64,000 nucleotides of DNA. It comes from a virus. The stretch lies in IMG/VR virus record IMGVR_UViG_3300006924_000007, positions 1-64,000 of that record; one strand, given 5' to 3'. The notes under the pieces were generated by a model, which worked only from the letters and a program-made list of their open reading frames with translations, was not told the origin of the DNA and did no database searches. Made by a program: the position numbers and the translations under genes. Of the stretch, positions 918 through 59,661 are shown piece by piece (the stretch's first letter is position 1; each line of letters begins with the position of its first letter).

Positions 918-1183
918 TTGTAGATAGGACACTCACTTACTTTGAACTTAACCTTATGTTCTAACCAACAACCACAGTGTTTACATCTATTATGTCTCAT
1001 ACTATAATACTCACACGTCTTACATATATCCAATCGTTCTTTTTTTAATTCATCATTTGCGAATACTTCTCCCTCCGTGACTCCTATATTGAGCACACTA
1101 TCCTTGACCACTTCGAATGTAAACTTGGCAAGATTCTTTCCTTGTTCCTTAATTGTAGGAAACTCTTCCTTATTATTATCCAT
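911..1183 (-). CDS. Small zinc-ribbon-like protein
   Basis: A 90-residue protein with a C-terminal cysteine cluster of the form C-x2-C-(x)n-C-x2-C-x-C, followed by H and a CP-x3-W ending, which is expected to bind zinc. A paralogue with the same C-terminal pattern is encoded at 1765-2100, and the two flank a 2OG-Fe(II) oxygenase gene. The ATG at 1183 overlaps the oxygenase stop codon, so the two are coupled; the in-frame TTG at 1216 lies inside the oxygenase gene and is less likely. The pairing suggests a role alongside the oxygenase, but no function is established. Confidence 0.75.
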   Translation of the reverse strand: MDNNKEEFPTIKEQGKNLAKFTFEVVKDSVLNIGVTEGEVFANDELKKERLDICKTCEYYSMRHNRCKHCGCWLEHKVKFKVSECPIYKW

Positions 1184-1778
1184 TGTAATTTGCCAGATAA
1201 AACCAACCTGTTGCAATATACTTTGTACCTTCTAATACTAACCCTCCTCTATGGCAATGTGTCATACCTGCGGGCCATATTAGTAACTTTCCCTTCTCAG
1301 GTTGTATCCTTTTCTTATAATATAGGAACTCTGTTTCTCCACCCTGATAATCATCATTCAAATAGATCATCCATACAAGGCATCGATTGGCATGTTCTAA
1401 TCCTGAGTTTTCATCGTGCCAGACATGATAACCACCACCGGCAGGAGTTTTCTGTATCTTCTGTGAGAGTGAATACATTGGTACAGTCTTTAGATGACCA
1501 AAGACATTTACATATTCATTAAAACATGATTGTAATGTCTCATTCAGTAATTGTGAATGATTATCCTTCATTGCAGGATTCATCTCTGCCAAATCTAATG
1601 CCCAATCAAATCGTCCGGCATTACTGTTCTCAAATTGATTATCTTCACAAAAGACTGCATCAATATCCTGATAATAATCAAAAGACTTAATAATACTATC
1701 ACAAAACTTGGAATCATATACATTAGAATACGTTCCTATAAAATCATTGTATTCACCTTTGAGTTCAATTGTTTCCAT
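1176..1778 (-). CDS. 2OG-Fe(II) oxygenase, prolyl-hydroxylase-like
   Basis: A 200-residue protein with the double-stranded beta-helix signature of 2-oxoglutarate/Fe(II) dioxygenases. A GGGYHVWHDEN stretch at about residues 115-124 supplies the first ligands (H121-x-E123, an HxE variant of HxD), H176 is the distal histidine, and K186 is placed to bind 2-oxoglutarate. The NDDYQGGETEF segment (about 141-151) is typical of prolyl-4-hydroxylase-like members. It overlaps the zinc-ribbon gene upstream by 14 bases and another zinc-ribbon gene downstream. Such enzymes hydroxylate protein side chains; the nearby glycine-rich adhesin is a possible substrate, by inference only. Confidence 0.85.
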   Translation of the reverse strand: METIELKGEYNDFIGTYSNVYDSKFCDSIIKSFDYYQDIDAVFCEDNQFENSNAGRFDWALDLAEMNPAMKDNHSQLLNETLQSCFNEYVNVFGHLKTVPMYSLSQKIQKTPAGGGYHVWHDENSGLEHANRCLVWMIYLNDDYQGGETEFLYYKKRIQPEKGKLLIWPAGMTHCHRGGLVLEGTKYIATGWFYLANYNG

Positions 1779-3334: not shown

Positions 3335-3346
3335 TATTTATTTATT
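3335..3346 (-). promoter_or_regulatory. Late promoter-like AATAAATA element
   Basis: On the minus strand AATAAATAAATA precedes the adhesin start by about 25 bases and abuts the TGA stop of the upstream oxygenase. It matches the T4-type late promoter (TATAAATA) except at the first base. Confidence 0.5.
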
Positions 3347-3825
3347 CACATATATTTAATTGCGACAGTAAATCGATGGTCATTTCTAAATGTTGTGGCA
3401 CGATGCCATAGATTCGCACTAAACACAACCATACGATTCGGTATTGGTAAGATACCATACAGTTCATCATTCATTAGAAATTGTGTCTCTCCTCCATCAT
3501 CTTTGTCCCATCCCATATTTGGATAATACAGGAATGTTACTCCATTATCACCATCGGTATGAAAATATGGACGCTCACATGGTACAAAACAATTCACATA
3601 CATTCGGTAGAGTTTCTTACCCTGCACTTGCTCTGATGAATCTTTTAACTTCTTTTTGATCAGTTTATATACAAACTCCGTCTCTGGTATATTATGAATC
3701 ATACCCGTCACAGGTAGATTTGCATCATCTCTCTCACCATATGAATACTCTGCACTCATACAATACTCATGAATAACCTGATGCTCCTCCTCAGAAAAGA
3801 ACTGATCAATATAATTAAGGTCCAT
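3346..3825 (-). CDS. 2OG-Fe(II) oxygenase
   Basis: A 159-residue protein with a clear H89-T-D91 metal motif, distal H141 and R151 for 2-oxoglutarate. The GGETQF strand at about 111-116 is typical of the fold. It is short for the family but contains the whole catalytic core. Its start overlaps the end of the preceding oxygenase gene by 11 bases, so two different oxygenases are translated as a coupled pair. Substrate unknown; protein or small-molecule hydroxylation are both possible. Confidence 0.85.
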   Translation of the reverse strand: MDLNYIDQFFSEEEHQVIHEYCMSAEYSYGERDDANLPVTGMIHNIPETEFVYKLIKKKLKDSSEQVQGKKLYRMYVNCFVPCERPYFHTDGDNGVTFLYYPNMGWDKDDGGETQFLMNDELYGILPIPNRMVVFSANLWHRATTFRNDHRFTVAIKYM

Positions 3826-4469: not shown

Positions 4470-4766
4470 TTAATCTACCTCAACATTATCAAACCGATTG
4501 TATGTATCCATCTCATCTAAGGTTTTACCATACTTATTCTTCCTTGTGTAGACATATTTCAAGTCATTCCAATACTGTGGATGACAAACTAAAAGTGTAT
4601 GAATATATTTGTGCCTCTCAATCTTTGTATATTCACAATTTGGTTTTGGTTTGACACCAGTCTCAATCGTAATATACAGTTCATCTACAAAATATACCCA
4701 ACCTTTGTGAACTATATCATTTTTATCCCAAATAACATAGTCATCAACTTTTGGAGTATAGTGCAT
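4470..4766 (-). CDS. Conserved hypothetical, small beta-barrel-like
   Basis: A 98-residue protein starting MHYTPKVDDYVIW. Its alternating hydrophobic/charged pattern (DYVIW, GWVYFVDELYITIETG) suggests a small SH3/Tudor-like barrel, and a KYIHTLLVCHPQYW segment follows. I recognise it as typical of cyanomyovirus accessory genes but know no function. The ATG at 4766 overlaps the upstream gene by 23 bases; a TTG two codons further up is also possible. Confidence 0.65.
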   Translation of the reverse strand: MHYTPKVDDYVIWDKNDIVHKGWVYFVDELYITIETGVKPKPNCEYTKIERHKYIHTLLVCHPQYWNDLKYVYTRKNKYGKTLDEMDTYNRFDNVEVD

Positions 4767-5106
4767 ATTCAAGAGGGTTGAGGTTGAGTTGCATTGCGGT
4801 GTATGGAGTCGTAGAACTAATATCTACCTTATCTCCGTGCTTGGTGGAGTTAATAGGCGCATGATAGCATCTCTTCTTTGTACCATAGAATCCCCAGATT
4901 GATCGGGGAGGTGTATCAGTATAAGAGAACATGCCATGGTTGATAATCCAAATAGCAAGCATATTTTTTCTATGCTCTGTAACTTCATATGAGAAACCTT
5001 TTGGAGATTGATGTATGAAATCACGCGGGAGTTCAATCGTTGTCAATAACTGCTCTGAGTCTGTCTGGTGCGATTCCAATTCCGAGATAGTCTTGCAGTT
5101 TGGCAT
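4744..5106 (-). CDS. Conserved hypothetical protein
   Basis: A protein of up to 120 residues with a compact aromatic core (SPKGFSYEV, IWIINHGMFSYTD, RSIWGFYGTKK) and a TPYTAMQLNLNPLE ending. No family identified. The ATG at 5106 would overlap the upstream gene by 74 bases; an in-frame TTG at 5046 would overlap by only 14 and is a realistic alternative, which would remove the first 20 residues. Same operon as the oxygenase genes. Confidence 0.6.
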   Translation of the reverse strand: MPNCKTISELESHQTDSEQLLTTIELPRDFIHQSPKGFSYEVTEHRKNMLAIWIINHGMFSYTDTPPRSIWGFYGTKKRCYHAPINSTKHGDKVDISSTTPYTAMQLNLNPLEYALYSKS

Positions 5107-5726: not shown

Positions 5727-6113
5727 TCAAGCACCCTGATAGTATGCGTTACGATAGAGATAACCACCTGCCCAATCACAGTTCTCCAACACAAACTCAC
5801 GTTCTTCGATGATTAGCAGATTGAAACGCACACCTTTTGCAGGTGCTTTGACTGATGCAGGTTTGTAAACTTCACCAGTCTTCTTATCAATGAAGGCATG
5901 AACTGATTCAGTCTGACCATCTACACATTGCATCACTTTGTGATACTTACGACCAGAAACTAATGCGTAAGAATAGTTACGACCATTTGGATGTGAACGT
6001 TGATAGTTTTGTTGTAGTGCATCACAAAGCATGAGAGCATACTTGGTGACATTCAACTGAATGGTGTTCTGAGCGTCTTTCTGAGCAACGTAGTCGGTGA
6101 AGGTGGCAGTCAT
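5727..6113 (-). CDS. Hypothetical protein downstream of cassette A1
   Basis: A 128-residue protein (MTATFTDYVAQKDAQ...) with a basic middle (RSHPNGRNYSYALVSGRKYHKVM) and a beta-rich second half. The ATG at 6113 directly follows the promoter cassette and a GGGAAACC leader. A 12-residue upstream extension (MPYNTFIQGKPP) is identical to one in front of the gene at 7112 only because both run into the duplicated promoter sequence, so I reject it. Function unknown. Confidence 0.65.
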   Translation of the reverse strand: MTATFTDYVAQKDAQNTIQLNVTKYALMLCDALQQNYQRSHPNGRNYSYALVSGRKYHKVMQCVDGQTESVHAFIDKKTGEVYKPASVKAPAKGVRFNLLIIEEREFVLENCDWAGGYLYRNAYYQGA

Positions 6114-6195
6114 GGGTGGTTTCCCTTGTATGAATGTATTATAGGGCATCCTGAAGGAGTTTCAACATGCCGTGTGACACTAGTTAAACTGGCAC
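6111..6195. repeat. 85-bp direct repeat, copy 1
   Basis: Matches 7292-7376 at 83 of 85 positions. It contains the start codon, leader, -10, -35, stem and TGTCACA box of promoter cassette A1, and the last codons of the Dam-like gene. Confidence 0.9.
6138..6194 (-). promoter_or_regulatory. Composite stem-loop early promoter A1
   Basis: On the minus strand: CAGTT, then a TGTCACA box (6173-6179), then a GGCAT/ATGCC weak stem around -35 TTGAAA (6160-6165), a 16-bp spacer and -10 TATAAT (6138-6143). The box lies 29 bp from the -10. It overlaps the stop codon of the Dam-like gene and drives the 6113 gene. Confidence 0.75.
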
Positions 6196-6690
6196 ATAAA
6201 GGGTTCCATATTTACCAAAAGTGTTCTTGAATCGGTCAAGATCAGTTCCAAGGTATATGATAGCAGACTGAAATGGTGCTGCACTTTTGGCAGCACCGAA
6301 TCTTAACCGTCTATTGACTCCTATCCATGGATATTTCTCAATAGATCTCCACCATTTGGTAGAAACGTCCAACTTAATGAGAAGAACCATTTCTTTCGCA
6401 TTTCCATTTTCGTATTGGGCAGCAGCATGGGGAATCCAGGTTTTACTGGCAGAATATGGATGATTCATAAAAACCTTACCAAACCATGGATGTTTTAAAC
6501 CATCCGTTTCTTCAGTATAAAGAACCTTAGCAGGAACGTTTGGATTGTTTACATCATTACAACATGGGTCAGTATCAATCTGCCCATCAAAGAATTTGAC
6601 AACATCACCCACAAATTCTACAGGAGTATTCCACGTATCTTTACGATTGCCTGTACTTGCTGTTAGAACTTGAAGTGTGTTTGATGTCAT
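6184..6690 (-). CDS. dam: Dam-like DNA N6-adenine methyltransferase
   Basis: A 168-residue protein matching the phage DNA N-6-adenine-methyltransferase family (PF05869 type): WNTPVEFV at about 20-27, a GQIDTDPC motif (37-43), YTEETDGL (58-65), and the catalytic motif at 76-79. That motif reads NHPY rather than the usual NPPY/DPPY, an unusual change in the catalytic loop. The start codon overlaps the stop of the upstream PD-(D/E)XK nuclease (ATGA), so the pair is translated together. It probably methylates adenine in the phage genome; whether the NHPY variant is active is unknown. Confidence 0.8.
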   Translation of the reverse strand: MTSNTLQVLTASTGNRKDTWNTPVEFVGDVVKFFDGQIDTDPCCNDVNNPNVPAKVLYTEETDGLKHPWFGKVFMNHPYSASKTWIPHAAAQYENGNAKEMVLLIKLDVSTKWWRSIEKYPWIGVNRRLRFGAAKSAAPFQSAIIYLGTDLDRFKNTFGKYGTLYVPV

Positions 6691-7109
6691 GAATAGAGAT
6701 ACTCTTGAACGAATTGATTGTGATTGATGATACGAACATCAGGATAGATAGACTTCATTTTAGCACAGAACTCTTCAGAAAGATAGTATTCTTTCCACTT
6801 CCATGCTTTGTCAGGTCCGGCAACAACAATCGTTGCAGACTTGTATTCATAATCATCAATCGCATGTTGCAATTTCATGAACTCAAAAGGAATTTTTTCC
6901 TCGGCAGTTCCCTGAACACGTTGATACTTAAGACTAATAAGTTCGGTTTCATCTAGAAGAATATCAAGTTTGTGTTTACCACCATTGCGCTTTTTACCAA
7001 TCCAAACTTGTGACTCTACCTTGTGGTCACTAAATTGCTCCAGAAGATTTTCAACCTCTGTCTCATAATTAGTGCCGGTCGTTGTGTCGCGGGATGCAGA
7101 AGTTGCCAT
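6687..7109 (-). CDS. PD-(D/E)XK-type nuclease
   Basis: A 140-residue protein with the core HKLDILL (D49) followed by ELISLKYQRVQGTAEEKIPFEF (K61). This resembles restriction-endonuclease-like proteins in which a KxD, then VSLKWQ-x-V-x-GTAEEKIPFE segment forms the active site. The acid normally two residues before the lysine is S here, as I recall for this subgroup. Acidic helix residues E16/E18/E20 may supply another metal ligand. It is coupled to the Dam-like gene by an ATGA overlap, a restriction-modification-like arrangement. The ATG at 7109 was chosen over a TTG two codons earlier. Confidence 0.65.
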   Translation of the reverse strand: MATSASRDTTTGTNYETEVENLLEQFSDHKVESQVWIGKKRNGGKHKLDILLDETELISLKYQRVQGTAEEKIPFEFMKLQHAIDDYEYKSATIVVAGPDKAWKWKEYYLSEEFCAKMKSIYPDVRIINHNQFVQEYLYS

Positions 7110-7111
7110 AA

Positions 7112-7294
7112 TCAATAAGAATAGGTAGAAAGATTGCGAGCAGGAACGTGATACCCATTATCAGGATTATTCACATCAAAAACCCATACCAACTCATCAT
7201 CGGATGCCCGATAAACATCCATAGCAAACAAGGGAACCAGTTTGACCATGAGAGTACCCCAGTAATATTCTGTATCAAAGTCAAAGGTGGTCAT
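7112..7294 (-). CDS. 60-residue hypothetical protein
   Basis: MTTFDFDTEYYWGTLMVKL... is a small, acidic, beta-rich protein. It is the first gene behind cassette A2 and lies two bases before the nuclease ATG, so it belongs to the same unit as the nuclease and Dam-like methyltransferase. It could be a control or inhibitor protein for that pair, but this rests on position only. Confidence 0.6.
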   Translation of the reverse strand: MTTFDFDTEYYWGTLMVKLVPLFAMDVYRASDDELVWVFDVNNPDNGYHVPARNLSTYSY

Positions 7295-7376
7295 GGGTGG
7301 TTTCCCTTGTATGAATGTATTATAGGGCATCCTGAAGGAGTTTCAACATGCCATGTGACACTAGTTAAACTGACAC
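7292..7376. repeat. 85-bp direct repeat, copy 2
   Basis: Partner of 6111-6195 (83/85 identical). Together the two copies bracket the three-gene unit 6184-7294 (small protein, nuclease, Dam-like methyltransferase). Confidence 0.9.
7319..7375 (-). promoter_or_regulatory. Composite stem-loop early promoter A2
   Basis: TGTCACA box at 7354-7360, -35 TTGAAA at 7341-7346, 16-bp spacer, -10 TATAAT at 7319-7324; box to -10 is 29 bp. It drives the nuclease/Dam unit and overlaps the 3' end of the 7365 gene, whose last codons are made of the box region. Confidence 0.75.
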
Positions 7377-7613
7377 CCTGGACTTGAAATAAAGACCAGC
7401 AATCTGCATCATATCAATCAATACCGATTGAATTTTTTCAAGTTCTTCTGGATCAATTTCAGAATCCCAAAAATCTACAATTTCAAACTCCTCAAAATTT
7501 ACACTACCATTTTTATACATTGGAGAGTAAAATAGTTCCCCCTCAGTACAAACAGCATAGACTCTGCCATGATTTTTAACCGTTACAAATACACCAGAAA
7601 ATTGTGGGTTCAT
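7365..7613 (-). CDS. Hypothetical protein
   Basis: An 82-residue protein (MNPQFSGVFVTVKNHGRVYAVC...) with an N-terminal beta hairpin pattern and an acidic C-terminal helix (DSEIDPEELEKIQSVLIDMMQIAGLYF). No family recognised. The ATG overlaps the stop of a 48-residue gene upstream (ATGA). Confidence 0.6.
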   Translation of the reverse strand: MNPQFSGVFVTVKNHGRVYAVCTEGELFYSPMYKNGSVNFEEFEIVDFWDSEIDPEELEKIQSVLIDMMQIAGLYFKSRVSV

Positions 7614-7756
7614 GATTCGGGAAGAGTTAGTTGTTCAAATCGAAGATGATCATCACAAGAGTCATCGTCTTGCAAATCAATCATCTCAGTATCAGTGAGG
7701 GAAGTGAGTTTACCGAAGAGAAAATCGATAAACTCATGGTCTTCTTTGGTGAACAT
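7610..7756 (-). CDS. 48-residue acidic protein
   Basis: MFTKEDHEFIDFLFGKLTSLTDTEM... is a small acidic helical protein with a DDDSCDDH stretch. It starts two bases after the previous stop and ends in an ATGA overlap with the next gene, so it is the middle of a three-gene coupled unit. Function unknown. Confidence 0.55.
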   Translation of the reverse strand: MFTKEDHEFIDFLFGKLTSLTDTEMIDLQDDDSCDDHLRFEQLTLPES

Positions 7757-7758
7757 AA

Positions 7759-8025
7759 TCAGCAACCCATTGGAGTGTACTCGGAACGATCCATTTTGTC
7801 GGTGTTGTAGTTAGTAACTGTTGCACCGTTGGCAATACGCTCTGCCCACTCATTCTTGGCAGTGAGCATAGTCACAGTGCTATAAGATTTTTGACCATTA
7901 GCACGGAAAGTGACACGTTTTTGGAAACGCTTAACAACAACCTTCGTTCCTGTGATAGGATCTGCCTCGGCAATGAATGCCTCAGGGAAGAAATCAACGA
8001 TACAGACGGAGTTGGTGAGTTGCAT
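7759..8025 (-). CDS. Hypothetical protein downstream of cassette C
   Basis: An 88-residue protein (MQLTNSVCIVDFFPEAF...) with a basic beta-rich centre (TKVVVKRFQKRVTFRANGQKSYSTVTML). It is the first gene behind the promoter embedded in the end of the methyltransferase gene. No family recognised. Confidence 0.6.
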   Translation of the reverse strand: MQLTNSVCIVDFFPEAFIAEADPITGTKVVVKRFQKRVTFRANGQKSYSTVTMLTAKNEWAERIANGATVTNYNTDKMDRSEYTPMGC

Positions 8026-8047
8026 GGGGTGGGTTGCTTATGTAGTT

Positions 8048-8099
8048 ATTATAGGGCATACAGAGCACTTTCCAATGGGTTCTGTGACACTTCTTCAAC
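8048..8099 (-). promoter_or_regulatory. Composite early promoter C, inside a CDS end
   Basis: TGTCACA box at 8083-8089, -35 TTGGAA at 8070-8075, 16-bp spacer, -10 TATAAT at 8048-8053; box to -10 is 29 bp. A weak CAGAAC/GCTCTG stem encloses the -35. The whole element is translated as the last residues of the methyltransferase, and its stop TAA is part of TATAAT. Confidence 0.7.
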
Positions 8100-9032
8100 T
8101 GGCACAAGAGTTTCTATTGATTTTTCAAATAATATCTTACCATCAGTGTTAAGATCAAATAAAATGTAATTTCTATTTGTCAGAATGGCACTTCTCCCCA
8201 CCGTGCCCGATCCGGCACAAGCATCAAGGACAATAGAACCTTCATTGCTAAACATTTTCAAAATTCTATTCAATAGTGCCACAGGTTTCTGCGTTGCATA
8301 ATCCAACTTCTCAACACCTTGAATTTGTTTGATATCATTCCACACGTCTTTTACTGGAATACCATCCATTTCATCAAGATATTTTTTTACTCTAGGAATA
8401 CCCGTATTGGGAGAATACTCCAGTCGATTATCATCGTGAAGCATTTGCATTCTCTCCTTTGATACATGCCACTGGAGATCATTACCATTCCATTCATATC
8501 TCAAATTGGGGCGAGACACAACATTTGGTTGACGATTAACGAGTGCAGATGTATTATATTTCTTCTTACGAACCTTACAGATTTTTGCTTTCTTTACAGT
8601 TTCTGTGTCATATTGTTTATGTTCTGCATTGTATATTGATTCCTTACCTTTCTGATATACAATAATTGTGTCGTGGTTTCTTTGTAATTGATACTTTGAT
8701 TTGTGATTACCACCAGACACCCATACAATTTCGTTCTTAAATTTTTTTTCTCCAAAGATGTCATCAAGAACAATGCGAACATGATGAGAGATCTTTGCCT
8801 CTACATGAATAACAATGTTGCCGACATCAGTCAAAATTCGATGACACTCTTCAAACATTGGACGCAACAACAATTCACGATAATCTGCACTGGAATTGAA
8901 TCTATCATCAAAATGATAAAAATCTCTTCCAGTGCAATAGGGTGGATCAATATAAATTAGATCCACAGTATTTGACTCAACTTCCTTCAGAAGTTCTCTG
9001 TTGTCACCTATTTTATACTCGTTGATTTTCAA
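8049..9032 (-). CDS. Beta-class DNA methyltransferase
   Basis: A 327-residue methyltransferase with catalytic DPPY at 29-32 near the N-terminus and the AdoMet-binding VLDACAGSGT at about 268-277 near the C-terminus. This motif order is that of beta-class N6-adenine/N4-cytosine enzymes; the region between is the target-recognition part. I place the start at the TTG at 9032 (about 20 bases overlap, GAGG upstream), because the longer reading runs deep into the endonuclease gene and adds atypical sequence. It sits directly behind a restriction-endonuclease-like gene, forming an R-M-like pair. The last 18 residues coincide with a promoter cassette. Confidence 0.85.
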   Translation of the reverse strand: MKINEYKIGDNRELLKEVESNTVDLIYIDPPYCTGRDFYHFDDRFNSSADYRELLLRPMFEECHRILTDVGNIVIHVEAKISHHVRIVLDDIFGEKKFKNEIVWVSGGNHKSKYQLQRNHDTIIVYQKGKESIYNAEHKQYDTETVKKAKICKVRKKKYNTSALVNRQPNVVSRPNLRYEWNGNDLQWHVSKERMQMLHDDNRLEYSPNTGIPRVKKYLDEMDGIPVKDVWNDIKQIQGVEKLDYATQKPVALLNRILKMFSNEGSIVLDACAGSGTVGRSAILTNRNYILFDLNTDGKILFEKSIETLVPVEEVSQNPLESALYAL

Positions 9033-9549
9033 GATTGGTGATGACCTCTTTTGCTCTTCCTTCGTATTTACGACGAAGAACTGCGGGGACTTGACCAACA
9101 CAGAAACCAGGCATTTTCTTATCCTCCAGTTCATAACTAGGGATTGCAAGATACTCCCACTCAGAAATATCTTCATGTCCCTTTGGAATGATAAACAAGA
9201 TTACATCGAAAGAATCGATTGCATATCTTACTTGACCATTCTTTGCACCGTTGGTTGCATTTTTACCAGTTGTGCGACGAGTCTGCTCCATGTGGAGAGT
9301 ATTACCTCCACGATATTTTACCTGGATACGAATTCCGCCGGGAGTAATACGATCATACTTCTCTTGTTGTCCTTCAGAATCGTCAGGTGATGGAGTGGTT
9401 GCAATATCACAAACATTACGCAACCATTGTGGTGCGATAATGCGTTCTGTGGGAAATGCAAGAAACTTACCAATTTCCCGTGTGTCTCCCTCTTTAATCA
9501 GTTCTTCAAAACCGAGAGCAACGATTTCGGAAAGTTGTGAAACTCCCAT
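9013..9549 (-). CDS. Restriction-endonuclease-like protein
   Basis: A 178-residue protein with D66 followed by IQVKYRGG (Q76-V-K78), a QxK version of the PD-(D/E)XK active site, and a TRRTTGKN...NGQVRYAIDSFDVILFI region (about 90-120) of the kind seen after the active site in type II restriction enzymes. The start has an AAGGAG Shine-Dalgarno and lies just behind cassette D. It overlaps the methyltransferase gene. It may cleave unmethylated host DNA or exclude rival phages, as known for chlorovirus nuclease-methylase pairs; activity here is inference, and the specificity is unknown. Confidence 0.65.
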   Translation of the reverse strand: MGVSQLSEIVALGFEELIKEGDTREIGKFLAFPTERIIAPQWLRNVCDIATTPSPDDSEGQQEKYDRITPGGIRIQVKYRGGNTLHMEQTRRTTGKNATNGAKNGQVRYAIDSFDVILFIIPKGHEDISEWEYLAIPSYELEDKKMPGFCVGQVPAVLRRKYEGRAKEVITNLENQRV

Positions 9550-9579
9550 CAGTGGTCTCCTTGTGTAATGTACTTAATC

Positions 9580-9626
9580 AGTATAGTATTAAAAAAGCAC
9601 CCTGTCAAGGGTGCTGTGCCAGTTAA
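9580..9626 (-). promoter_or_regulatory. Terminator-promoter D, -35 in the loop
   Basis: On the minus strand a GCACCC/GGGTGC hairpin (9614-9597) is followed by six T residues, a Rho-independent terminator for the metalloprotease gene. Its six-base loop is exactly TTGACA (9603-9608), which is the -35 of the next promoter: 17-bp spacer, -10 TATACT (9580-9585). A TGGCACA box (9615-9621) lies 29 bp from the -10. Confidence 0.85.
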
Positions 9627-9639
9627 TGAACTGAAAAGT

Positions 9640-9975
9640 TTAAGATTTAAATCTGTTGAACAGGATAGACTCTAACCCATATGCCTCCTCCTCTCTCTGA
9701 GTGTCATCAAACTGACCATTTTCATTCTGAACAACATGAACAAGTTCATGCAATAGTGTGGTAATGTAATCATTCTCATTCAAATCATTGTGAATCTGAA
9801 TGAATTGCTCATCACCATTGATTTCAGTAAAACCAAATGCATTGTCATCAGTGAGATCTGTATGAAATACTTCAACATCACTCTTTACACCATAGAGTGA
9901 TGTAAAGAACTCAAATATACTTTGAGCAAGATGTGAGTGTGATGATTGTCCAGAAGTGAAAAGCATTGATGTCAT
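9640..9975 (-). CDS. Zincin-like metalloprotease
   Basis: A 111-residue protein with HELVH at 76-80 followed by EEEAYGLE at about 95-102, giving two histidines and a downstream glutamate as zinc ligands in the manner of small IrrE/SprT-like zincins. It is shorter than most of these families and has no DNA-binding domain. It starts in an ATGA overlap with the upstream gene and ends just before terminator D. Host-protein cleavage is possible; the target is unknown. Confidence 0.7.
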   Translation of the reverse strand: MTSMLFTSGQSSHSHLAQSIFEFFTSLYGVKSDVEVFHTDLTDDNAFGFTEINGDEQFIQIHNDLNENDYITTLLHELVHVVQNENGQFDDTQREEEAYGLESILFNRFKS

Positions 9976-47594: not shown

Positions 47595-48707
47595 TTACAA
47601 TCCACCGTGACCGTTAGATGCAGATCCAGCACCACTCCTTGATTGTGTCAAATTACCAAAATCTATTGCATTTCCAGTGCTCATAATCTGAACATAATCA
47701 ATTGTATCTGTTCTACTCGGTGTTGGACGATTACCACCAGCCCAGACTCCACGAGTTGGTGATGATGTAGCCTTCATTTCACCACCTCCAACAGTTAAAT
47801 CACCAAAATCAACTGCATCTCCTAATGTTGCAATAGTAATATACTCAATAGTATTAACATTAGGACCTGCACCCCCGAAAAGTCCCCTAACAGAATTTGA
47901 ACAAGCTCCACCACCAGATGCAAACACATCGCCAAATTCTGATGCATTACCTAATGTAGATATCATTATAAATTCAAGAGTTGCTCCACCAAATACTGCC
48001 CTTGTTGAAGACTGACAAGCAGATTTCCCGCCAACATTTGAAGCATTACCAAAGTCTTGTGCATTTCCTGTTGACTGAATAGTTATATAATCAATAGTAT
48101 CAACATTAGTAGTAGTATAACCAGCAATAAAAAGACCTCTGGTTGAATTTGAAGCACCGCCAGCAGACATTCTTGCTTGTGATAAATTACCAAAATCTGC
48201 TGCATTTCCAGTTGATGCAATAGTAACAAAATCAATTGTATCTAATACTGTTGGAGTTCTTCCACCTCCGAAACACGCTCTGGTTCTGTCAGAAACTCCT
48301 GCTTGTAAGTGAACACCACTGCTTTGTGCATCACCAAAATTAATTGCATCTCCTGTTGACTGAATAGTTATATAATCAATTGTATTCGTATTTGGAGTTT
48401 CTCCACCAGAGAAGAGTCCACGAGTTCCACCAGTCTGTAACTCTGGTGACCAACTATCAACTTCCATCCATATTCCGTTGGGAGTTGTTCCAAATCCAAC
48501 GGGCCCGAGTATATAAACTTCTAATTTCTTGGAGTCAGTATTAAATCTGATTGATCCTGCGGGTGCTTGATTGTATGATGGTAATTCTTGTCCAGAAACA
48601 TCACCAAAGGCACTTCCACCTCCTACTGTGGTATAACTTCCGCTACCACCACCTGAACCACCGGAGCTGCCACCGCCTCCGCCTCCGCCGCCGCCACCAT
48701 ATCCCAT
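47595..48707 (-). CDS. Kelch-like adhesin paralogue K1
   Basis: A 370-residue member of the array: N-terminus MGYGGGG followed by a long glycine/serine stretch, an IRFNTDSKKLEVY module, then six repeats of about 46 residues of the type TRG-x-FGGG-x-NTIDYITIASTGNA-x-DFG-x-L, and the common end NGHGGL. The fourth repeat is shortened (ATLEFIMISTLGN). The six-fold, double-glycine pattern implies a beta-propeller. Its start shares bases with K2's stop. It probably forms part of a tail fibre. Confidence 0.75.
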   Translation of the reverse strand: MGYGGGGGGGGGGSSGGSGGGSGSYTTVGGGSAFGDVSGQELPSYNQAPAGSIRFNTDSKKLEVYILGPVGFGTTPNGIWMEVDSWSPELQTGGTRGLFSGGETPNTNTIDYITIQSTGDAINFGDAQSSGVHLQAGVSDRTRACFGGGRTPTVLDTIDFVTIASTGNAADFGNLSQARMSAGGASNSTRGLFIAGYTTTNVDTIDYITIQSTGNAQDFGNASNVGGKSACQSSTRAVFGGATLEFIMISTLGNASEFGDVFASGGGACSNSVRGLFGGAGPNVNTIEYITIATLGDAVDFGDLTVGGGEMKATSSPTRGVWAGGNRPTPSRTDTIDYVQIMSTGNAIDFGNLTQSRSGAGSASNGHGGL

Positions 48708-49729
48708 TAGCCTAGACCTCCATGTGAATCAGAACAAGCAGCAGTTTGGTTTCTTGCAAGATCTAAGTCACCAAAATCCTGTGCATCTCCAAGAGTGTTT
48801 ATAGTTACATAAGAAATAGAATCGCCATCAGATGTCATATCACCAAAAATTGCTCTGGTTGGTGATGAACATGCTGATCCTAAAGTACATCCACTAATAC
48901 AATCACCAAAATCTATTGCATCACCAAGACTTGCGATCGTTATATGATCAATGATATTAGTATTAGATGGATTTGCTCCACCAAAAAATAATCCCCTCGT
49001 AGAATTGGATGCGGAAGCACCTTCTTTTCTCGCGTCTGTCAAATCCCCAAAGTCCTTTGTATTACCTTCAGTTGATATTGTTATATACTCTATTGTATTA
49101 ACTGCAGGGTATGGAGATGCATATGGAGAATTTGATAAAGCAATAATACCTCTAGTTGTTGATGCATTCGACATGCCATAAGCAAAGGTTGCTGATGCAT
49201 CTCCAAAAGTAGTTGCATTACCAAGACTGTTTATAGTTATAAACTCCATCTCACGAAAAGCTGTAACAGTGGGAGCAATATTCCCTCCCACACAAATACC
49301 TCTGGTGTTATCAGAAAGACAAGCAGTTCCTCTTTTTTGTCTGGTTAAATCACCAAAGTCAAAAGTATTTCCAAGTTGAGATATTGTAAGATATTGTATG
49401 GTGTTAATGTTAGTTGGAAATGTCTCTCCACCCATGAAGATGCCACGAGTGGATGATGCACAACCACCAAATTCTGCAGTGGTTGTTGTTAAATTGCCAA
49501 AGTCGAGACCATTTCCTAAAGTAGAGATGGTAAATTTATCCATTCTCTCTTTGAGTCCTGGTGATGTTCTACCACCGACAAAGATACCAGTTCCTCTACC
49601 ACCACGATAAGCAGTATCACCTCTTGGTAGTGCCATTGCACCAGTAGAGTTCATCTCAACGGTGCCAGAAATTACAGGACCATTAGTTCCACTCAAACTT
49701 TGTATATTGTTTACCTTAATGTCTGACAT
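48707..49729 (-). CDS. Kelch-like adhesin paralogue K2
   Basis: A 340-residue paralogue starting MSDIKVNNIQSLSGTNGPVISG, a short neck of the MP-x-GDTAYRGGRG type, then six propeller repeats (the fourth diverged: TRGIIALSNSPYASPYP) and an SDSHGGLG end. Transcribed from a late promoter that contains the stop codon of K3. Same predicted fold as K1 but with a different neck. Confidence 0.75.
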   Translation of the reverse strand: MSDIKVNNIQSLSGTNGPVISGTVEMNSTGAMALPRGDTAYRGGRGTGIFVGGRTSPGLKERMDKFTISTLGNGLDFGNLTTTTAEFGGCASSTRGIFMGGETFPTNINTIQYLTISQLGNTFDFGDLTRQKRGTACLSDNTRGICVGGNIAPTVTAFREMEFITINSLGNATTFGDASATFAYGMSNASTTRGIIALSNSPYASPYPAVNTIEYITISTEGNTKDFGDLTDARKEGASASNSTRGLFFGGANPSNTNIIDHITIASLGDAIDFGDCISGCTLGSACSSPTRAIFGDMTSDGDSISYVTINTLGDAQDFGDLDLARNQTAACSDSHGGLG

Positions 49730-49749
49730 CGGTTAATATCTCATACGAT

Positions 49750-49757
49750 TATTTATC
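49750..49757 (-). promoter_or_regulatory. Late promoter fused to K3 stop
   Basis: GATAAATA overlaps the GGA-TAA end of K3 and drives K2. Confidence 0.6.
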
Positions 49758-50886
49758 CAAGACCACCATGTGAATCAGAACAACCATTTTTTAATCTTCT
49801 TCTTGCGGCAGTTAAATTTCCAAAGTCGGTTGCATCACCAAGAGTTGCGATAGTCACATAATCAATGACATCACTTAATGATGGTGATTCTCCCCCTGCC
49901 CAACAACAACGAGAGGGTGAAGAAAACGCACCTACTTGTCCTCTTCCTACAGTCAAATCGCCAAAATCTAGTGAATCTCCAAGAGATGCGATTGTGATGT
50001 AATCTATTGCTGCATTAAAGGGAACTCCCGGATAATCTCCACCACCAAATACACCTCTTACAGAATTCGATGCACCGTTAGCATCAGTTGCCCCATTTAT
50101 ACCAGCATCTCCAAAATCTTGTGCATTTCCCATCGTGGAAATGGTCACGTATTGCATGGTATTGTTATATGTTCCAGGTGATGGAGCATAATAGTTTATC
50201 CAAATACCTCTGGTTGAACTTGCTGCATTGGAGAAATTATTACAAGCAGTGACCAGATCACCAAAGAAGAATGCATTCCCTAATGTAGAAATTGTAATTT
50301 GATCAATGGTGCTTCTATAATTGGACTGGTCGTAACCTCCTCCGGCCAATCCTCTAGTGTCATTTGATACTGTACCGACTCCGTGCTCTGCTGAACTTAA
50401 ATCTCCAAAATCAAATGCATTTCCAGTTGCAGAAATTGTTACATAATCAATTGTATTTTGAGAAGTATCACCTGGAGCATTTCCTCCACACCAAACTCCA
50501 CGCACAGAAGAAGCAAGACCAGAAACATAATCGTTTGCTCTAGTTAAATCGCCAAAATCGGTTGCATCTCCTGTTGTTGCAATTGTTACGTAATCAATAG
50601 TATTAAATTGTGAAGGACCAAATCCTCCACCCCACATTCCACGACCTCTACTACCTCTCTCTGCCGTAGTTCCACTTGGAGGAATGAAGTGTGCCGTGGA
50701 ATTTACTTCTACAATACCATCAACATCTGTTCCTCTCTTTCCATCTCTGCTTGTTATATTATCTACTTTTAGGTTTGCGGTTCTATCATCACTTACACGG
50801 CGATATCCAGACCCACCAGAAGCACCTGATCCTCCTCCTGATCCACCGCCACCGCCGCCGCCGCCACCGCCGCCACCGTATCCCAT
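49753..50886 (-). CDS. Kelch-like adhesin paralogue K3
   Basis: A 377-residue paralogue with a long polyglycine/serine front, an NLKVDNITSRDGKRGTD neck and six repeats, ending SDSHGGLG. The glycine-rich front is unique to K1 and K3 in the array and resembles the glycine-tyrosine tail of the hub protein at 24913. Confidence 0.75.
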   Translation of the reverse strand: MGYGGGGGGGGGGGGSGGGSGASGGSGYRRVSDDRTANLKVDNITSRDGKRGTDVDGIVEVNSTAHFIPPSGTTAERGSRGRGMWGGGFGPSQFNTIDYVTIATTGDATDFGDLTRANDYVSGLASSVRGVWCGGNAPGDTSQNTIDYVTISATGNAFDFGDLSSAEHGVGTVSNDTRGLAGGGYDQSNYRSTIDQITISTLGNAFFFGDLVTACNNFSNAASSTRGIWINYYAPSPGTYNNTMQYVTISTMGNAQDFGDAGINGATDANGASNSVRGVFGGGDYPGVPFNAAIDYITIASLGDSLDFGDLTVGRGQVGAFSSPSRCCWAGGESPSLSDVIDYVTIATLGDATDFGNLTAARRRLKNGCSDSHGGLG

Positions 50887-50914
50887 TAGTTACTCCGACT
50901 ATAGTATCTCACAG

Positions 50915-50922
50915 TATTTATC
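50915..50922 (-). promoter_or_regulatory. Late promoter fused to K4 stop
   Basis: GATAAATA overlaps the GGA-TAA end of K4 and drives K3. Confidence 0.6.
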
Positions 50923-51988
50923 CCAATCCACCGTGACCATTAGAAATGCCCATAGAAAGTCTTCTTGCACTGGTCAAATTACCAAAGTCAACTGCATCAC
51001 CTAAACTCATAATCTGTACATAAGCAATTGTATCAACATTTGGTGTTCCTCCGCCAGCAAAAATTGAACGAGTCGATGATGCTGCTGATGTTGAATATGC
51101 TGCATCATAGGTTAAATCACCAAAATCTATTGCATTTCCAAGGGTGGCAATTGTTCCATAACTTAAAGATCCAACAGGAGATCCACCATCTCCATGAATA
51201 CCTCTTACAGAATTGGAAGATGAACCTCTATTTGAAGTGGTAGATTGTGCATCTCCAAAGTCCGCAGAATTTCCTAATGTGGATATTGTAATATATTGAA
51301 TTGTATTAATGCTGCTAATACTGGGAGTTGTACCTGTGTTTCCACATAGGTGAATACCTCTTGTTGATGAAGCCCATCCACCACCTGTATGATTTCCTGC
51401 ACCAGTATATAAATCACCAAAATCAACAGCATCTCCTGTTGATGCAATGGTTATGTAGTCGATTACATTTGATCCTTTATAATTGGGAGATTGAGGTGCA
51501 AGACCACCCATAAGAACACCACGAGTGGAATTTGCACAACTGCCCATACTTCTTCTGGCAGTGGTCATATCACCAAATGTGGTGTCATTACCTGTTGATG
51601 ATATGGTGATGTACTTCAGGTTCGTTGAATAATGAGGTAAATTTCCTCCGAATACACCTCTTGTTCTTGATGCCAGAGCAAATCCCTCATAATCGGATGT
51701 TGCAGTTCCAAAAGAAATTGCATCGCCAGTGGAACTCATATTAACATAATCAATACCAGTTTGATCTCTTCCACATACAATTACACCACGAGTTCCACCA
51801 GTCTGAATATCTGGTGAATCAGTTGTGAGTTGAACCCATTCTCCTGCTGCCATGGTTCCAATGCCAGCATAAGAACTTGTGCTTCCACCTTCCATTCCAA
51901 TACGGAAATACTCTAGTTTCATAGAGTCCGTGTTGAATCTGATTGCTCCTGGAGTTATATTACCTGGTGCGTTTTCTCCGTGTGCCAT
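50918..51988 (-). CDS. Kelch-like adhesin paralogue K4
   Basis: A 356-residue paralogue that starts directly with a GAIRFNTDSMKLEYF module (no MSE-type neck), then six repeats, ending SNGHGGLG. Its start overlaps K5's stop by one base, so K5 and K4 are translationally coupled: a long-neck and a short-neck member as a pair. Confidence 0.75.
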   Translation of the reverse strand: MAHGENAPGNITPGAIRFNTDSMKLEYFRIGMEGGSTSSYAGIGTMAAGEWVQLTTDSPDIQTGGTRGVIVCGRDQTGIDYVNMSSTGDAISFGTATSDYEGFALASRTRGVFGGNLPHYSTNLKYITISSTGNDTTFGDMTTARRSMGSCANSTRGVLMGGLAPQSPNYKGSNVIDYITIASTGDAVDFGDLYTGAGNHTGGGWASSTRGIHLCGNTGTTPSISSINTIQYITISTLGNSADFGDAQSTTSNRGSSSNSVRGIHGDGGSPVGSLSYGTIATLGNAIDFGDLTYDAAYSTSAASSTRSIFAGGGTPNVDTIAYVQIMSLGDAVDFGNLTSARRLSMGISNGHGGLG

Positions 51989-52992
51989 TATCCTAGACCT
52001 CCGTGTGAATCAGAACATGCACCAACTTCTCTTCCTGCTTCAATTAAATCTCCAAAGTCAACTGCATTACCAATAGATGCAATGGCGACATAATCAATTA
52101 CATCACTATCACTTGGAGTATCACCACCACCCCAGACACCACGAGTACTAGAGGAACAAGCACCAGGATAATATCTTGCTAATGTCAAATCACCAAAGTC
52201 TTGTGCATTTCCTTTTGATGCAATAGTGACATAATCCATTGTATTAACTCTGGCTGGGGCCGAGACTCCACCAGCAAAAACACCACGAGTTGATGAAGAA
52301 CAAGCAGAAACTCCATATCTTACTTGAGTTAAATCTCCAAAGTCTGCTGCATTTCCTAATGATGCTATGGTGATAAAATCTATTGTGTTTTGATTAGTTG
52401 CTCCAGGATCTTGACCACCACCAAAGACACCACGAGTACTAGAGGAACAAGCACCAAGATTACTTCTTATTTGAGTTAAGTCACCAAAGTATGCAGCATT
52501 TCCTTTTGATGCAATGGTAATATAATCTATTATTTTTACTTTAGCTGTTGCATCCTCACCACCACCAAAGACCCCACGAGTACTAGAGGAACAAGCAGGA
52601 AATTCTTTTCTTACTCCAGTCAAATCACCAAAATCAAATGCATTACCTGTTGATGATATAGTTACAAATTCTATTATGTTTAATCTACTTGGAACAGCAC
52701 CACCACCAAAGACACCACGAGTACTAGAGGAACAAGCACTCGGAGCTTTCCTTGCTGCAGATAAATTGCCAAAATCAGTTGCATTTCCTAGTGTAGAAAT
52801 TGTTATATACTCAATTCTATCAGTAGATGGATCTCCCCCACCAAAAACACCACGACCTCTACCACCACGATAAGCAGTATCACCAGAAGGCATCACAATA
52901 CCAGAAGTTCCAGTGAAGGTAGTGATACCTGCAATATCTGGTCCTCTGGATGCATCTTGACTTTTGATTTGATCTATTCTAAATTCTGACAT
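51988..52992 (-). CDS. Kelch-like adhesin paralogue K5
   Basis: A 334-residue paralogue with an MSEFRIDQIKSQDASRGPDIAG neck and six highly regular repeats of TRGVFGGG type. Four repeats share a long identical DNA block around CACGAGTACTAGAGGAACAA (near 52138, 52431, 52575, 52716), showing recent intragenic copying. It is one of the most uniform members of the array. Confidence 0.78.
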   Translation of the reverse strand: MSEFRIDQIKSQDASRGPDIAGITTFTGTSGIVMPSGDTAYRGGRGRGVFGGGDPSTDRIEYITISTLGNATDFGNLSAARKAPSACSSSTRGVFGGGAVPSRLNIIEFVTISSTGNAFDFGDLTGVRKEFPACSSSTRGVFGGGEDATAKVKIIDYITIASKGNAAYFGDLTQIRSNLGACSSSTRGVFGGGQDPGATNQNTIDFITIASLGNAADFGDLTQVRYGVSACSSSTRGVFAGGVSAPARVNTMDYVTIASKGNAQDFGDLTLARYYPGACSSSTRGVWGGGDTPSDSDVIDYVAIASIGNAVDFGDLIEAGREVGACSDSHGGLG

Positions 52993-54047
52993 TATAAACC
53001 TCCGTGACCATTAGAGCATCCCATTTCTTGTAAAAGAGTTGGGTTTATCAGGTCACCAAAATCAATTGCATTGCCGGTTGTCATAATTTGAACATAATCT
53101 ATTATATTAGTTTGTGTTGGTGCCCAAGATCCTGCCCAACATCCACGAGTTGGTGATGATACTGCACCAATCTCATGTCTTGCTGTAGTTAAGTCACCAA
53201 AATCAGTTCCATTACCAAGAGTACTCATCGTCACATATTCAATGGCATTTGTACTTGATCCGGCATTACCACCACCATTCAAACCTCTCACTGCATTTGA
53301 ACATCCGGCAGCATAATATTTTGCAACATTTAAATTACCAAAATCTGCAGTATTTCCAAGAGTTGATATGGTAACAAATTGAATATAGTCTTTGATATCA
53401 CTTATATATCCTCCCATTGCAAATCCACGAGTGGGTGAATTAAATGATGATTGAGATCTCACTGCCTCAGTAAGATCGCCAAAATCTTTTCCAGCACCTG
53501 TTGCTGCAATAGTGACATATTCTATACTTGCAGTTAAAGGTGATGGTCCAGTAAAACCACCAGCTATAAGACCCCTAGTTGAATTACTCATACCAACAGG
53601 ATAATACCTACCAGTGGGTATATCACCAAAATCTGTTGTATTGCCACCACTTGCTATGGCACAAGTATCAATAGAAGCAAGTGTAGATGGAGTAAGTCCT
53701 CCTGCCCACATTGCTCTTGTTCTACTAGAGAATCCAGCATTACCATATACTGCTCCACTTCCAGATAAAGTTCCAAAATCTACTGCATTACCAGTAGTGT
53801 TAATCTGTATATATTGAATGTCATCATATCTTGGATGAGGCGATGTTCCAAAACCACCTGCATACAATCCACGAGTTCCACCAGTCTGAACCTCTGGTGA
53901 TGTTGCTTCTATTTCTTCCCACTGACCAGCAGCAAGTGTGCCGATTCCTGCCATTGAAGCAGTTCCTTCATAGTTTGCACTACCACGAAAGATCTCCAGC
54001 TTCATGGAGTCGGTATTAAATCTAAATGCTCCTGGTTTAATCGTCAT
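52992..54047 (-). CDS. Kelch-like adhesin paralogue K6
   Basis: A 351-residue paralogue that begins MTIKPGAFRFNTDSMKLEIF, then six repeats, ending NGHGGL. It has its own late promoter (54070-54076) and overlaps K5 by one base, so K6-K5-K4 form one coupled unit. Confidence 0.75.
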   Translation of the reverse strand: MTIKPGAFRFNTDSMKLEIFRGSANYEGTASMAGIGTLAAGQWEEIEATSPEVQTGGTRGLYAGGFGTSPHPRYDDIQYIQINTTGNAVDFGTLSGSGAVYGNAGFSSRTRAMWAGGLTPSTLASIDTCAIASGGNTTDFGDIPTGRYYPVGMSNSTRGLIAGGFTGPSPLTASIEYVTIAATGAGKDFGDLTEAVRSQSSFNSPTRGFAMGGYISDIKDYIQFVTISTLGNTADFGNLNVAKYYAAGCSNAVRGLNGGGNAGSSTNAIEYVTMSTLGNGTDFGDLTTARHEIGAVSSPTRGCWAGSWAPTQTNIIDYVQIMTTGNAIDFGDLINPTLLQEMGCSNGHGGL

Positions 54048-54069
54048 CAGATATTACTCTCCATAGTTA

Positions 54070-54076
54070 TATTTAG
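54070..54076 (-). promoter_or_regulatory. Late promoter fused to K7 stop
   Basis: CTAAATA contains the TAA stop of K7 and lies upstream of K6. Confidence 0.55.
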
Positions 54077-55206
54077 AGACCTCCGTGACCGTTGGAACAA
54101 CCACCTTCTCCGCTCCATCTTGCAACTGTCAAATTGCCAAAATCTACTGCATTACCGGTTGTTTGTATTGTTACAAAATCAATAGTATCATCGTTTGGTG
54201 CTGCACCACCAGCCCATAAACCTCTTATAGGTGAAGAGGTTGAGTTTCCGTGTTGCATGGTTCTTGTTAAATCACCAAAGTCTTGTGCATTTCCTAATGT
54301 TGCAATGGTAATAAATTGTATTGTACTAACTTTTGATGGTGTTAATCCTCCTCCATGTACTCCTCTTGTCGCATTACCACATCCAATCGCATCAAATTGA
54401 TTCTGCACCAAATCTCCAAAGTCTTGTGCATTTCCGGTAGTAGATGTGGTTACATATTGAATTGTAGAATCCTCTGCTGGTGTAGAACCTCCGGCAAATA
54501 TGGCACGAACTGGTGATTGGCATGTTCCAACATTATTAGTTGCTGCAATTAGATCTCCAAAATCAACTGCATTACCTGTTGATTGAATTGTAACATAATC
54601 AATTGTATTTACTTTAGTTGGACTTGCAACTCCACCACCAAATAGTGCTCTCGTTGAATTAGCAGCGGATCCAGCACCTCTTCTACCTACACTCAAATTT
54701 CCAAAATCTTGTGCATTTCCTGTTGACGAAATTGTTACATAATCTATTACATCATTTGTTGGATTTTGTCCTCCCCATAAACCTCTAGTTCTATCCGCAT
54801 TAGCTGCAGCAGCATATCTTGCTACTGTTAGATTTCCAAAGTCCTGTGCGTTTCCAAGAGTAGAGATAGTAACATAATCAATTACATCTTGATTTGCTGG
54901 TGCAGCATATCCACCACCAAACAATCCACGAGCTCCTGTTCCACCGGAAGAGTTTGTATTATTTTGATCTCCAAGTTCGTTGTTATTAGTAATCACATCA
55001 ACCCAAAGTTCACCTGTGTAATACTCAAGGTGACCACTATCAGTATTAAACCTTATCATCCCTTCTCCGGGACTTGAAGGTCTCTGTGCTGTTGAACCTG
55101 ATGGTGGAACAAAATAGTTTGGTGATGAGAATGTAGAGATGCCAGATACTACTGGTGCTCCATCTTCGTTCTCGTTAAAAAGATTGCTTACATTAAGTCT
55201 TGACAT
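54073..55206 (-). CDS. Kelch-like adhesin paralogue K7
   Basis: A 377-residue paralogue with the full neck: MSRLNVSNLFNENEDGAPVVSG, a FVPPSGSTAQRPSSPGEGMIRFNTDSGHLEYYTGELW module, an NNTNSSGGTG linker and six repeats. K7, K8 and K9 have identical lengths and the same domain order, so they are the most recently related trio. Confidence 0.75.
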   Translation of the reverse strand: MSRLNVSNLFNENEDGAPVVSGISTFSSPNYFVPPSGSTAQRPSSPGEGMIRFNTDSGHLEYYTGELWVDVITNNNELGDQNNTNSSGGTGARGLFGGGYAAPANQDVIDYVTISTLGNAQDFGNLTVARYAAAANADRTRGLWGGQNPTNDVIDYVTISSTGNAQDFGNLSVGRRGAGSAANSTRALFGGGVASPTKVNTIDYVTIQSTGNAVDFGDLIAATNNVGTCQSPVRAIFAGGSTPAEDSTIQYVTTSTTGNAQDFGDLVQNQFDAIGCGNATRGVHGGGLTPSKVSTIQFITIATLGNAQDFGDLTRTMQHGNSTSSPIRGLWAGGAAPNDDTIDFVTIQTTGNAVDFGNLTVARWSGEGGCSNGHGGL

Positions 55207-55208
55207 GA

Positions 55209-56342: not shown

Positions 56343-56344
56343 AA

Positions 56345-57478: not shown

Positions 57479-57481
57479 GTA

Positions 57482-58273: not shown

Positions 58274-58297
58274 AATTTTTGAAAAACCCTACAGGTC

Positions 58298-58331
58298 AAA
58301 AAATTGCCGGGATTTTTTTACGGCAATTTTT
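58298..58331. terminator. Bidirectional terminator
   Basis: An 11-bp AAAAATTGCCG/CGGCAATTTTT stem (58299-58309 with 58321-58331) with T runs in both directions, downstream of the 58354 gene and before the sulfotransferase. Confidence 0.75.
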
Positions 58332-58353
58332 GGAAATAAAAGTTGAATTTGGT

Positions 58354-58932: not shown

Positions 58933-58937
58933 TGTTG

Positions 58938-59660: not shown

Positions 59661-59661
59661 A

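What the first reader, a model, noticed from the sequence alone, without database searches (positions are those of the whole stretch)
6184..9549. Two DNA methyltransferase-nuclease modules in an early region
A Dam-like methyltransferase coupled to a PD-(D/E)XK nuclease (6184-7109) and a beta-class methyltransferase overlapping a restriction-endonuclease-like gene (8049-9549) sit next to each other, each behind its own cassette. Two restriction-modification-like pairs in one phage is unusual. By analogy with chloroviruses, the phage may mark its own DNA and digest host or rival DNA.
Basis: partly seen in the sequence, partly recalled or inferred. Interest (0 to 1): 0.8.

Follow-up and report, generated by a model that had tools for sequence, protein, structure and literature searches.

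The report
Swappable restriction-modification pairs in a cyanophage
This ocean virus of cyanobacteria carries two neighbouring gene pairs, each coding for a DNA-cutting enzyme and a DNA-marking enzyme, in sets that related viruses swap, lose and rebuild; they could let the virus destroy unmarked host or rival DNA while sparing its own, but no activity has been tested.

Summary
The window is part of a T4-like cyanomyovirus contig. Module 1 (7109-6184, minus strand) is a PD-(D/E)XK nuclease (nuc1) overlapping a PF05869 Dam-like adenine methyltransferase. Module 2 (9549-8049) is a nuclease with an invariant D..QxK motif (nuc2) overlapping a beta-class methyltransferase. Comparison with about 130 related loci shows exchangeable restriction-modification (R-M) type modules. 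An otherwise 99.8% identical contig lacks module 1 exactly, leaving one copy of the 87-bp promoter repeat that flanks it. A 207.6-kb relative lacks module 2 and carries a MutH-like nuclease plus a ParB-like gene in place of nuc1. S-SKS1 holds an unrelated nuclease+methyltransferase pair in the module-2 slot. Two unrelated Dam families and two unrelated nuclease families (nuc1, MutH-like) occur in all four combinations. In 64 isolate records bearing a D12 Dam, 39 have nuc1 and 25 the MutH-like gene, with no overlap among the records listed. Because MutH and classical Dam act on GATC, nuc1 is predicted to cut unmethylated GATC. Only 4 of 200 genomes of the host family have a classical Dam. The likeliest role is self/non-self discrimination: attack on host or rival DNA. 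Enzyme activity, specificity and role are untested.

The parts
9013..9549 (-). nuc2: 178-aa candidate restriction endonuclease (D66-x9-Q76-x-K78), module 2
   Evidence: No profile hit; motif invariant in the aligned relatives including a 36% one; adjacent to mt2 in all 24 mt2 loci. AF2 model poor, pLDDT 50.
8049..9032 (-). mt2: beta-class N6/N4 DNA methyltransferase (DPPY...DACAGSG), module 2; TTG start overlaps nuc2 by 20 nt
   Evidence: PF01555 8.9e-40; resembles EcoP15I Mod, RsrI, MboIIA, CcrM; start inferred from relatives
9580..9615 (-). terminator stem-loop overlapping promoter TTGACA-17-TATACT in front of nuc2 (PeSL-like composite)
8048..8075 (-). promoter TTGGAA-16-TATAAT inside the 3' end of mt2, for the phrog_500 gene downstream
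7290..7376 (-). 87-bp promoter repeat, copy 1 (TTGAAA-16-TATAAT)
7112..7294 (-). phrog_12800 small protein (real start MTTFDF...), first gene of module 1
   Evidence: also upstream of the nuclease in L021, L024, L053, L063, L066
6687..7109 (-). nuc1: 140-aa PD-(D/E)XK nuclease (D49...S59-L-K61; E16 in the first helix)
   Evidence: PF20472 1.7e-7, phrog_6124; invariant residues in an alignment of 17 sequences; AF2 pLDDT 85, Foldseek BstEII/BspD6I
6184..6690 (-). dam1: 168-aa PF05869 Dam-like adenine methyltransferase (motif IV NHPY); ATGA overlap with nuc1
6109..6195 (-). 87-bp promoter repeat, copy 2, in front of the DUF7717 gene
6109..7289 (.). 1181-bp unit (phrog_12800-nuc1-dam1 plus one repeat copy) exactly absent from L006
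   Evidence: L006 1-2689 and 2603-3498 match at 99.8%, sharing one repeat copy
8036..9653 (.). module-2 interval absent from the relative L064; replaced by an unrelated nuclease+methyltransferase pair in S-SKS1

Best explanation
Two early-type, type-II-like restriction-modification modules of a lytic T4-like cyanophage, each a small restriction-type endonuclease gene overlapping its DNA methyltransferase gene. Shown by comparison: nuclease and methyltransferase are gained, lost and swapped as units at promoter-marked sites in the phage genome. Inferred: module 1 acts at GATC (dam1 methylates the adenine, nuc1 cuts unmethylated GATC); module 2 acts at another, unknown site. Inferred: progeny DNA leaves methylated, so on the next infection the early nucleases cut DNA lacking the mark (host chromosome, most of whose relatives lack Dam, or a rival phage) and spare the infecting genome. 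This would replace the hydroxymethylcytosine-based self/non-self rule that lets T4 endonucleases II and IV destroy host DNA and that cyanomyoviruses lack.
For: Pairing: nuc2+mt2 adjacent in all 24 mt2 loci with varied flanks, down to a 37%/50% identical pair. nuc1 or a MutH-like nuclease adjacent to a Dam in most loci. Dam genes 95% identical (window, L053) have unrelated partners, nuc1 and a MutH-like protein. All four combinations of {PF05869, D12 Dam} x {nuc1, MutH-like} occur. 64 D12-Dam isolate records: 39 nuc1, 25 MutH-like, no overlap. The MutH-like profile matches solved MutH at 1.8e-7. Clean empty and swapped alleles. Early-type promoters at the module borders. Dam over cut-off in 4/200 host-family genomes, PF05869 in 5/200. 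The window keeps 199 GATC sites, so it would need protection. Cyanomyoviruses lack denA/ndd/denB (PMC2984593), yet host DNA degrades within hours (PMC7852597).
Against: No activity, methylation or timing data. nuc1 has SxK instead of (D/E)xK, and its fold match is weak (E 1.9e-3, TM 0.50). nuc2 has no detected family and a poor model. dam1 has NHPY in motif IV. GATC specificity is inferred from partners. Five near-clonal nuc1 loci have no adjacent methyltransferase, and S-CAM7 has its Dam 32 kb from its MutH-like gene. Other, non-Dam GATC methylation in hosts is not excluded: D12-class proteins are in 26/200 host-family genomes.
Confidence: 0.66

Rival explanations
1. R-M modules whose main use is exclusion of co-infecting phages: the first phage's nucleases cut unmethylated rival genomes, host DNA being a side target.
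For: Rapid turnover and swapping of modules between otherwise similar phages fits an arms race; a viral GATC R-M system is proposed to exclude rivals in marseilleviruses (PMC7253447).
Against: Same anatomy as the host-degradation model; the host is expected to lack the Dam mark too, so sparing the host needs an extra reason.
Confidence: 0.35
2. Independent methyltransferases that protect phage DNA from host restriction; the neighbouring nucleases are recombination, repair or homing enzymes kept nearby by chance or for mobility.
For: Phages often carry orphan methyltransferases; cyanophage Dam has so far been listed only as a methylation gene (PMC10452541); nuc1 occurs without an adjacent methyltransferase in a few near-clonal loci.
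Against: 24/24 coupling of nuc2+mt2, and the exclusive choice of nuc1 or MutH-like beside Dam; a MutH fold beside Dam points to a shared site.
Confidence: 0.15
3. A phage methyl-directed mismatch-repair or replication-mark system (Dam + MutH-like nicking) in which nuc1 replaces MutH.
For: Partner profile hits MutH; one record is annotated MutH.
Against: No MutS or MutL gene was noticed beside the modules (not searched for systematically); nuc1 is not MutH-like; module 2 and the S-SKS1 pair have the same layout with non-Dam methyltransferases.
Confidence: 0.07
4. Selfish R-M cassettes kept by addiction, with no benefit to the phage.
For: Frequent gain and loss at promoter repeats.
Against: Clean loss in L006 with intact flanks shows that loss is tolerated; post-segregational killing has little meaning in a lytic phage.
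Confidence: 0.08

Closest known systems
Chlorovirus R-M systems (CviAI, CviAII, CviJI; PMC7019647)
   Same: Virus-encoded adjacent methyltransferase and restriction endonuclease; host DNA degradation attributed to the nuclease; some act at GATC
   Different: Eukaryotic virus; nuclease packaged in the virion. Here a T4-like phage of bacteria, different nuclease families, early-type promoters, interchangeable partners; packaging unknown
Marseillevirus mel_015/mel_016 GATC R-M (PMC7253447)
   Same: GATC methyltransferase with adjacent REase in a lytic virus; gained as a unit
   Different: mel_015 is CviAI-like; host DNA is not degraded there; no swapping of unrelated nucleases reported
MutH / Sau3AI / MvaI-BcnI nucleases
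   Same: The partner that replaces nuc1 in relatives matches MutH and weakly MvaI_BcnI
   Different: nuc1 itself shows no MutH match; no MutL/MutS context seen
PeSL mobile regulatory cassettes of T4-type phages (Arbiol 2010; Comeau 2014, known through PMC4503421)
   Same: Early promoters at borders of exchanged modules; terminator-promoter composite before nuc2
   Different: The two 87-bp repeats show no terminator hairpin in the scan
T4 denA/denB host-DNA degradation
   Same: Proposed purpose
   Different: T4 spares its DNA by modified cytosine; here by site methylation; cyanomyoviruses lack denA/ndd/denB (PMC2984593)

Membership tests
Type II restriction-modification system (modules 1 and 2) | Endonuclease and methyltransferase genes adjacent and co-inherited | tested here: met
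Type II restriction-modification system (modules 1 and 2) | Nuclease with an intact catalytic centre | tested here: inconclusive
   nuc1: PD-(D/E)XK profile and fold, invariant D49 and K61 but SxK. nuc2: invariant D66/QxK only, no confident fold
Type II restriction-modification system (modules 1 and 2) | Methyltransferase with SAM-binding and catalytic motifs | tested here: met
   mt2 DPPY + DACAGSG, PF01555; dam1 PF05869 with DP and NHP invariant
Type II restriction-modification system (modules 1 and 2) | Both enzymes recognise the same site and methylation blocks cleavage | not testable with these tools
   Indirect only: exchange of Dam and MutH partners
GATC-specific Dam methyltransferase (dam1) | Family membership PF05869 / phage N6A methyltransferase | tested here: met
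   PF05869 4e-16; TIGR01712 1.7e-14 but below its cut-off
GATC-specific Dam methyltransferase (dam1) | Methylates GATC | not testable with these tools
   No methylome data
MutH family (the alternative partner, not in the window) | Sequence homology and NKGxxGQLxE...DGExK motifs | tested here: met
   hmmsearch 2aoq 1.8e-7, 1azo 2.4e-4
MutH family (applied to nuc1) | Sequence or fold match to MutH | tested here: not met
   No MutH
PeSL mobile regulatory cassette | Early promoter combined with stem-loop terminator at module borders | tested here: inconclusive
   Met before nuc2 (9615-9580); promoter only in the 87-bp repeats

The most novel reading that the evidence does not exclude
T4-like cyanophages have replaced T4's modified-base rule with a pool of exchangeable R-M modules (nuclease +/- ParB-like protein + methyltransferase), several per genome, that carry out early host-DNA degradation and rival exclusion; nuc1 and nuc2 would be new restriction-endonuclease families and the ParB-like gene a new third component.
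Probability: 0.3. Interest if true: 0.85.

Novelty: new variant of a known kind. Interest (0 to 1): 0.68.

Why it matters
How cyanomyoviruses break down host DNA without T4's denA/ndd/denB is stated as open in the literature (PMC2984593), although the breakdown is fast (PMC7852597). These modules are a concrete, testable candidate. They would also show a virus swapping unrelated nucleases against a constant methylation mark, and would offer two uncharacterised nuclease families, one with a predicted site.

Tried and rejected
nuc2 by Pfam, PHROGs, NCBIfam, PADLOC, PDB sequence and profile, tblastn of 50,697 phages, and an 85,000-genome scan: nothing beyond close metagenomic relatives. nuc2 AF2 model pLDDT 50: not used for a fold search. 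GATC avoidance as evidence: O/E 0.64 in the window against 0.68 in S-SKS1, where no D12 Dam was found (dam1 not tested there), and other palindromes are more depleted; uninformative. MPYNTFIQGKPP as a shared leader peptide: rejected, it is the promoter repeat. 'Glutaredoxin', 'Cas4' and 'spectrin' matches to nuc1/nuc2: weak, ignored. The NPLxxAL tail of mt2 as only an embedded promoter: not sufficient, the motif recurs with synonymous codons and without an obvious promoter. ParB-like gene in the window's contig: one of its families searched, not found.
Full report
The window is bases 1-64000 of a 72,257-base IMG/VR virus record. DNA similarity places it among T4-like cyanomyoviruses, with Synechococcus phage S-SKS1 best (80.9% over 27% of the region). 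Everything in the finding lies on the minus strand.

Genes. Module 1, in transcription order: an 87-bp promoter repeat (7376-7290); a small phrog_12800 protein (7294-7112); nuc1 (7109-6687); dam1 (6690-6184), overlapping nuc1 by ATGA; and a second copy of the repeat (6195-6109) in front of a DUF7717 gene. Module 2: a terminator overlapping a promoter (9615-9580); nuc2 (9549-9013); mt2 (about 9032-8049), starting inside the end of nuc2; and a promoter in the 3' end of mt2. nuc1 matches PDDEXK_11, dam1 matches PF05869 Dam, mt2 matches N6_N4_Mtase, and nuc2 matches nothing.

Nuclease character. The nuc1 model (pLDDT 85) has the helix-strand-strand-strand-helix-strand order of the PD-(D/E)XK fold. 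Its closest solved structures include BstEII and the BspD6I small subunit, but no match reaches E 0.001 (best 1.9e-3, TM 0.50). D49 in the second strand and K61 in S-L-K of the third are invariant in an alignment of 17 sequences. The acidic residue of (D/E)xK is a serine here. nuc2 keeps D66 and Q76-x-K78 in all aligned relatives, including a 309-residue protein of 36% identity that sits beside a methyltransferase 50% identical to mt2. Its model is unreliable (pLDDT 50).

Coupling and exchange of module 2. All 24 mt2 loci found in viral contigs have nuc2 adjacent, in many different flanks. In S-SKS1 the same slot, between a metallopeptidase gene and the phrog_500 gene, holds a different nuclease (PD-x13-ExK invariant in 42 sequences) overlapping a different beta-class methyltransferase. 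In the 207.6-kb relative L064 the slot is empty, with only a short promoter stretch between the two flanking genes, and mt2 is not found elsewhere in that genome.

Exchange of module 1. L006 matches the window at 99.8% on both sides but lacks the 1181-bp unit that comprises the three genes and one copy of the repeat. This is what recombination between the two 87-bp copies predicts, in either direction. L064 has the same flanks and dam1, but a MutH-like nuclease and a ParB-like gene where the window has nuc1.

Partner logic. Scanning for dam1 showed a constant methyltransferase behind changing partners. After removal of duplicates the common arrangements were: nuc1-Dam(PF05869) 11; MutH-like-Dam(PF05869) 10; nuc1-ParB-Dam 3; MutH-like-ParB-Dam 3; nuc1-Dam-ParB 2; MutH-like-Dam-ParB 1; nuc1-Dam(D12) 3; Dam(D12) with MutH-like 3 and with nuc1-ParB 1 in isolates. 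The MutH-like profile matches solved MutH at 1.8e-7 over almost its full length. Among isolate phages, 64 records carry the D12 Dam; 39 carry nuc1 and 25 the MutH-like gene, without overlap. All 60 Dam records listed fall into one or the other group; of the four unlisted, S-CAM7 was checked, and its Dam lies 32 kb from its MutH-like gene. Many of these records are near-clonal; by phage name there are about four nuc1 and nine MutH-like lineages. Since MutH and classical Dam act at GATC (established knowledge), the simplest reading is that all these partners share GATC and that nuc1 is an isospecific substitute for the MutH-like enzyme. This is inference.

Third gene. ParB/DGQH-like genes lie between or beside the pair in a sizeable minority of loci. 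They were met in all three module types, including S-SKS1-type modules (nuclease-ParB-methyltransferase in 6 dereplicated loci; other 366-500-aa genes in further loci). The window's modules lack one as far as tested (one family searched).

Function. The borders carry early-type promoters. Of 200 genomes of the host family reached through Synechococcus RCC307, 4 have a classical Dam over cut-off and 5 a PF05869 protein; D12-class proteins of any kind are in 26. Most hosts are therefore expected to have unmethylated GATC. The window itself keeps 199 GATC sites, so the phage would need the methyltransferase. Cyanomyoviruses lack denA/ndd/denB, and an undescribed degradation route has been suggested (PMC2984593); host DNA is nevertheless lost within hours (PMC7852597). 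I therefore put self/non-self discrimination by methylation first, with host DNA as the likelier target and rival phages as the close alternative. The giant-virus precedents point both ways: chlorovirus nucleases are held to degrade host DNA (PMC7019647), whereas the marseillevirus GATC system does not and is proposed to exclude rivals (PMC7253447).

Shown versus inferred. Shown: gene content, conserved motifs, coupling, empty and swapped alleles, exclusive partner choice among the isolate records listed, rarity of Dam in the host family. Inferred: catalysis, GATC specificity, methylation of virions, early timing, biological role. A review that lists cyanophage methylases does not mention restriction partners (PMC10452541), and my literature searches found no report of these modules; only open-licence papers were searched.

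Noticed in passing
window 8049-8110 and 4744-5106; L001 4782-5705; L097, L112, L021, L064: A C-terminal tail [NT]PLxxAL(Y/S) ends beta-class methyltransferases (mt2, S-SKS1 type) and also a ~100-aa early protein family; terminal rate 2.4% against 0.03% internally, dominated by these two families, with varying Leu codons. Possibly a docking motif; partner unknown.
   Followed up: partly
L112, L119, L133, L145, L147, L152; L054, L059, L064, L066, L068; L002 4513-5421: ParB/DGQH-like genes (phrog_2615, phrog_2558, phrog_5778) recur between or beside nuclease and methyltransferase; an uncharacterised third component.
   Followed up: partly
window 7330, 6149; S-SKS1 SWZG_00193 (starts MPYNNHIQNKH): The promoter repeat is open in frame with the gene and is translated by ORF callers as a false N-terminus; at least one deposited S-SKS1 gene seems to start inside it.
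   Followed up: partly
dam1, window 6184-6690; alignment A5: Motif IV of the dam1 clade is NHP(Y/F) in all 19 aligned sequences, where the usual pattern is (D/N/S)PP(Y/F); effect unknown.
   Followed up: partly
window 47600-63900: Dozens of copies of a roughly 140-nt degenerate repeat (57 copies of the first family), probably a very long repetitive structural or adhesin-type protein.
   Followed up: no
window 1176-1778, 3346-3825: Two ORFs that look like 2OG-Fe(II) oxygenases near the start of the window; by eye only.
   Followed up: no
L033, L035, L036, L037, L039: Near-clonal loci with nuc1 but no adjacent methyltransferase; either elsewhere in the genome or a different use of nuc1.
   Followed up: no
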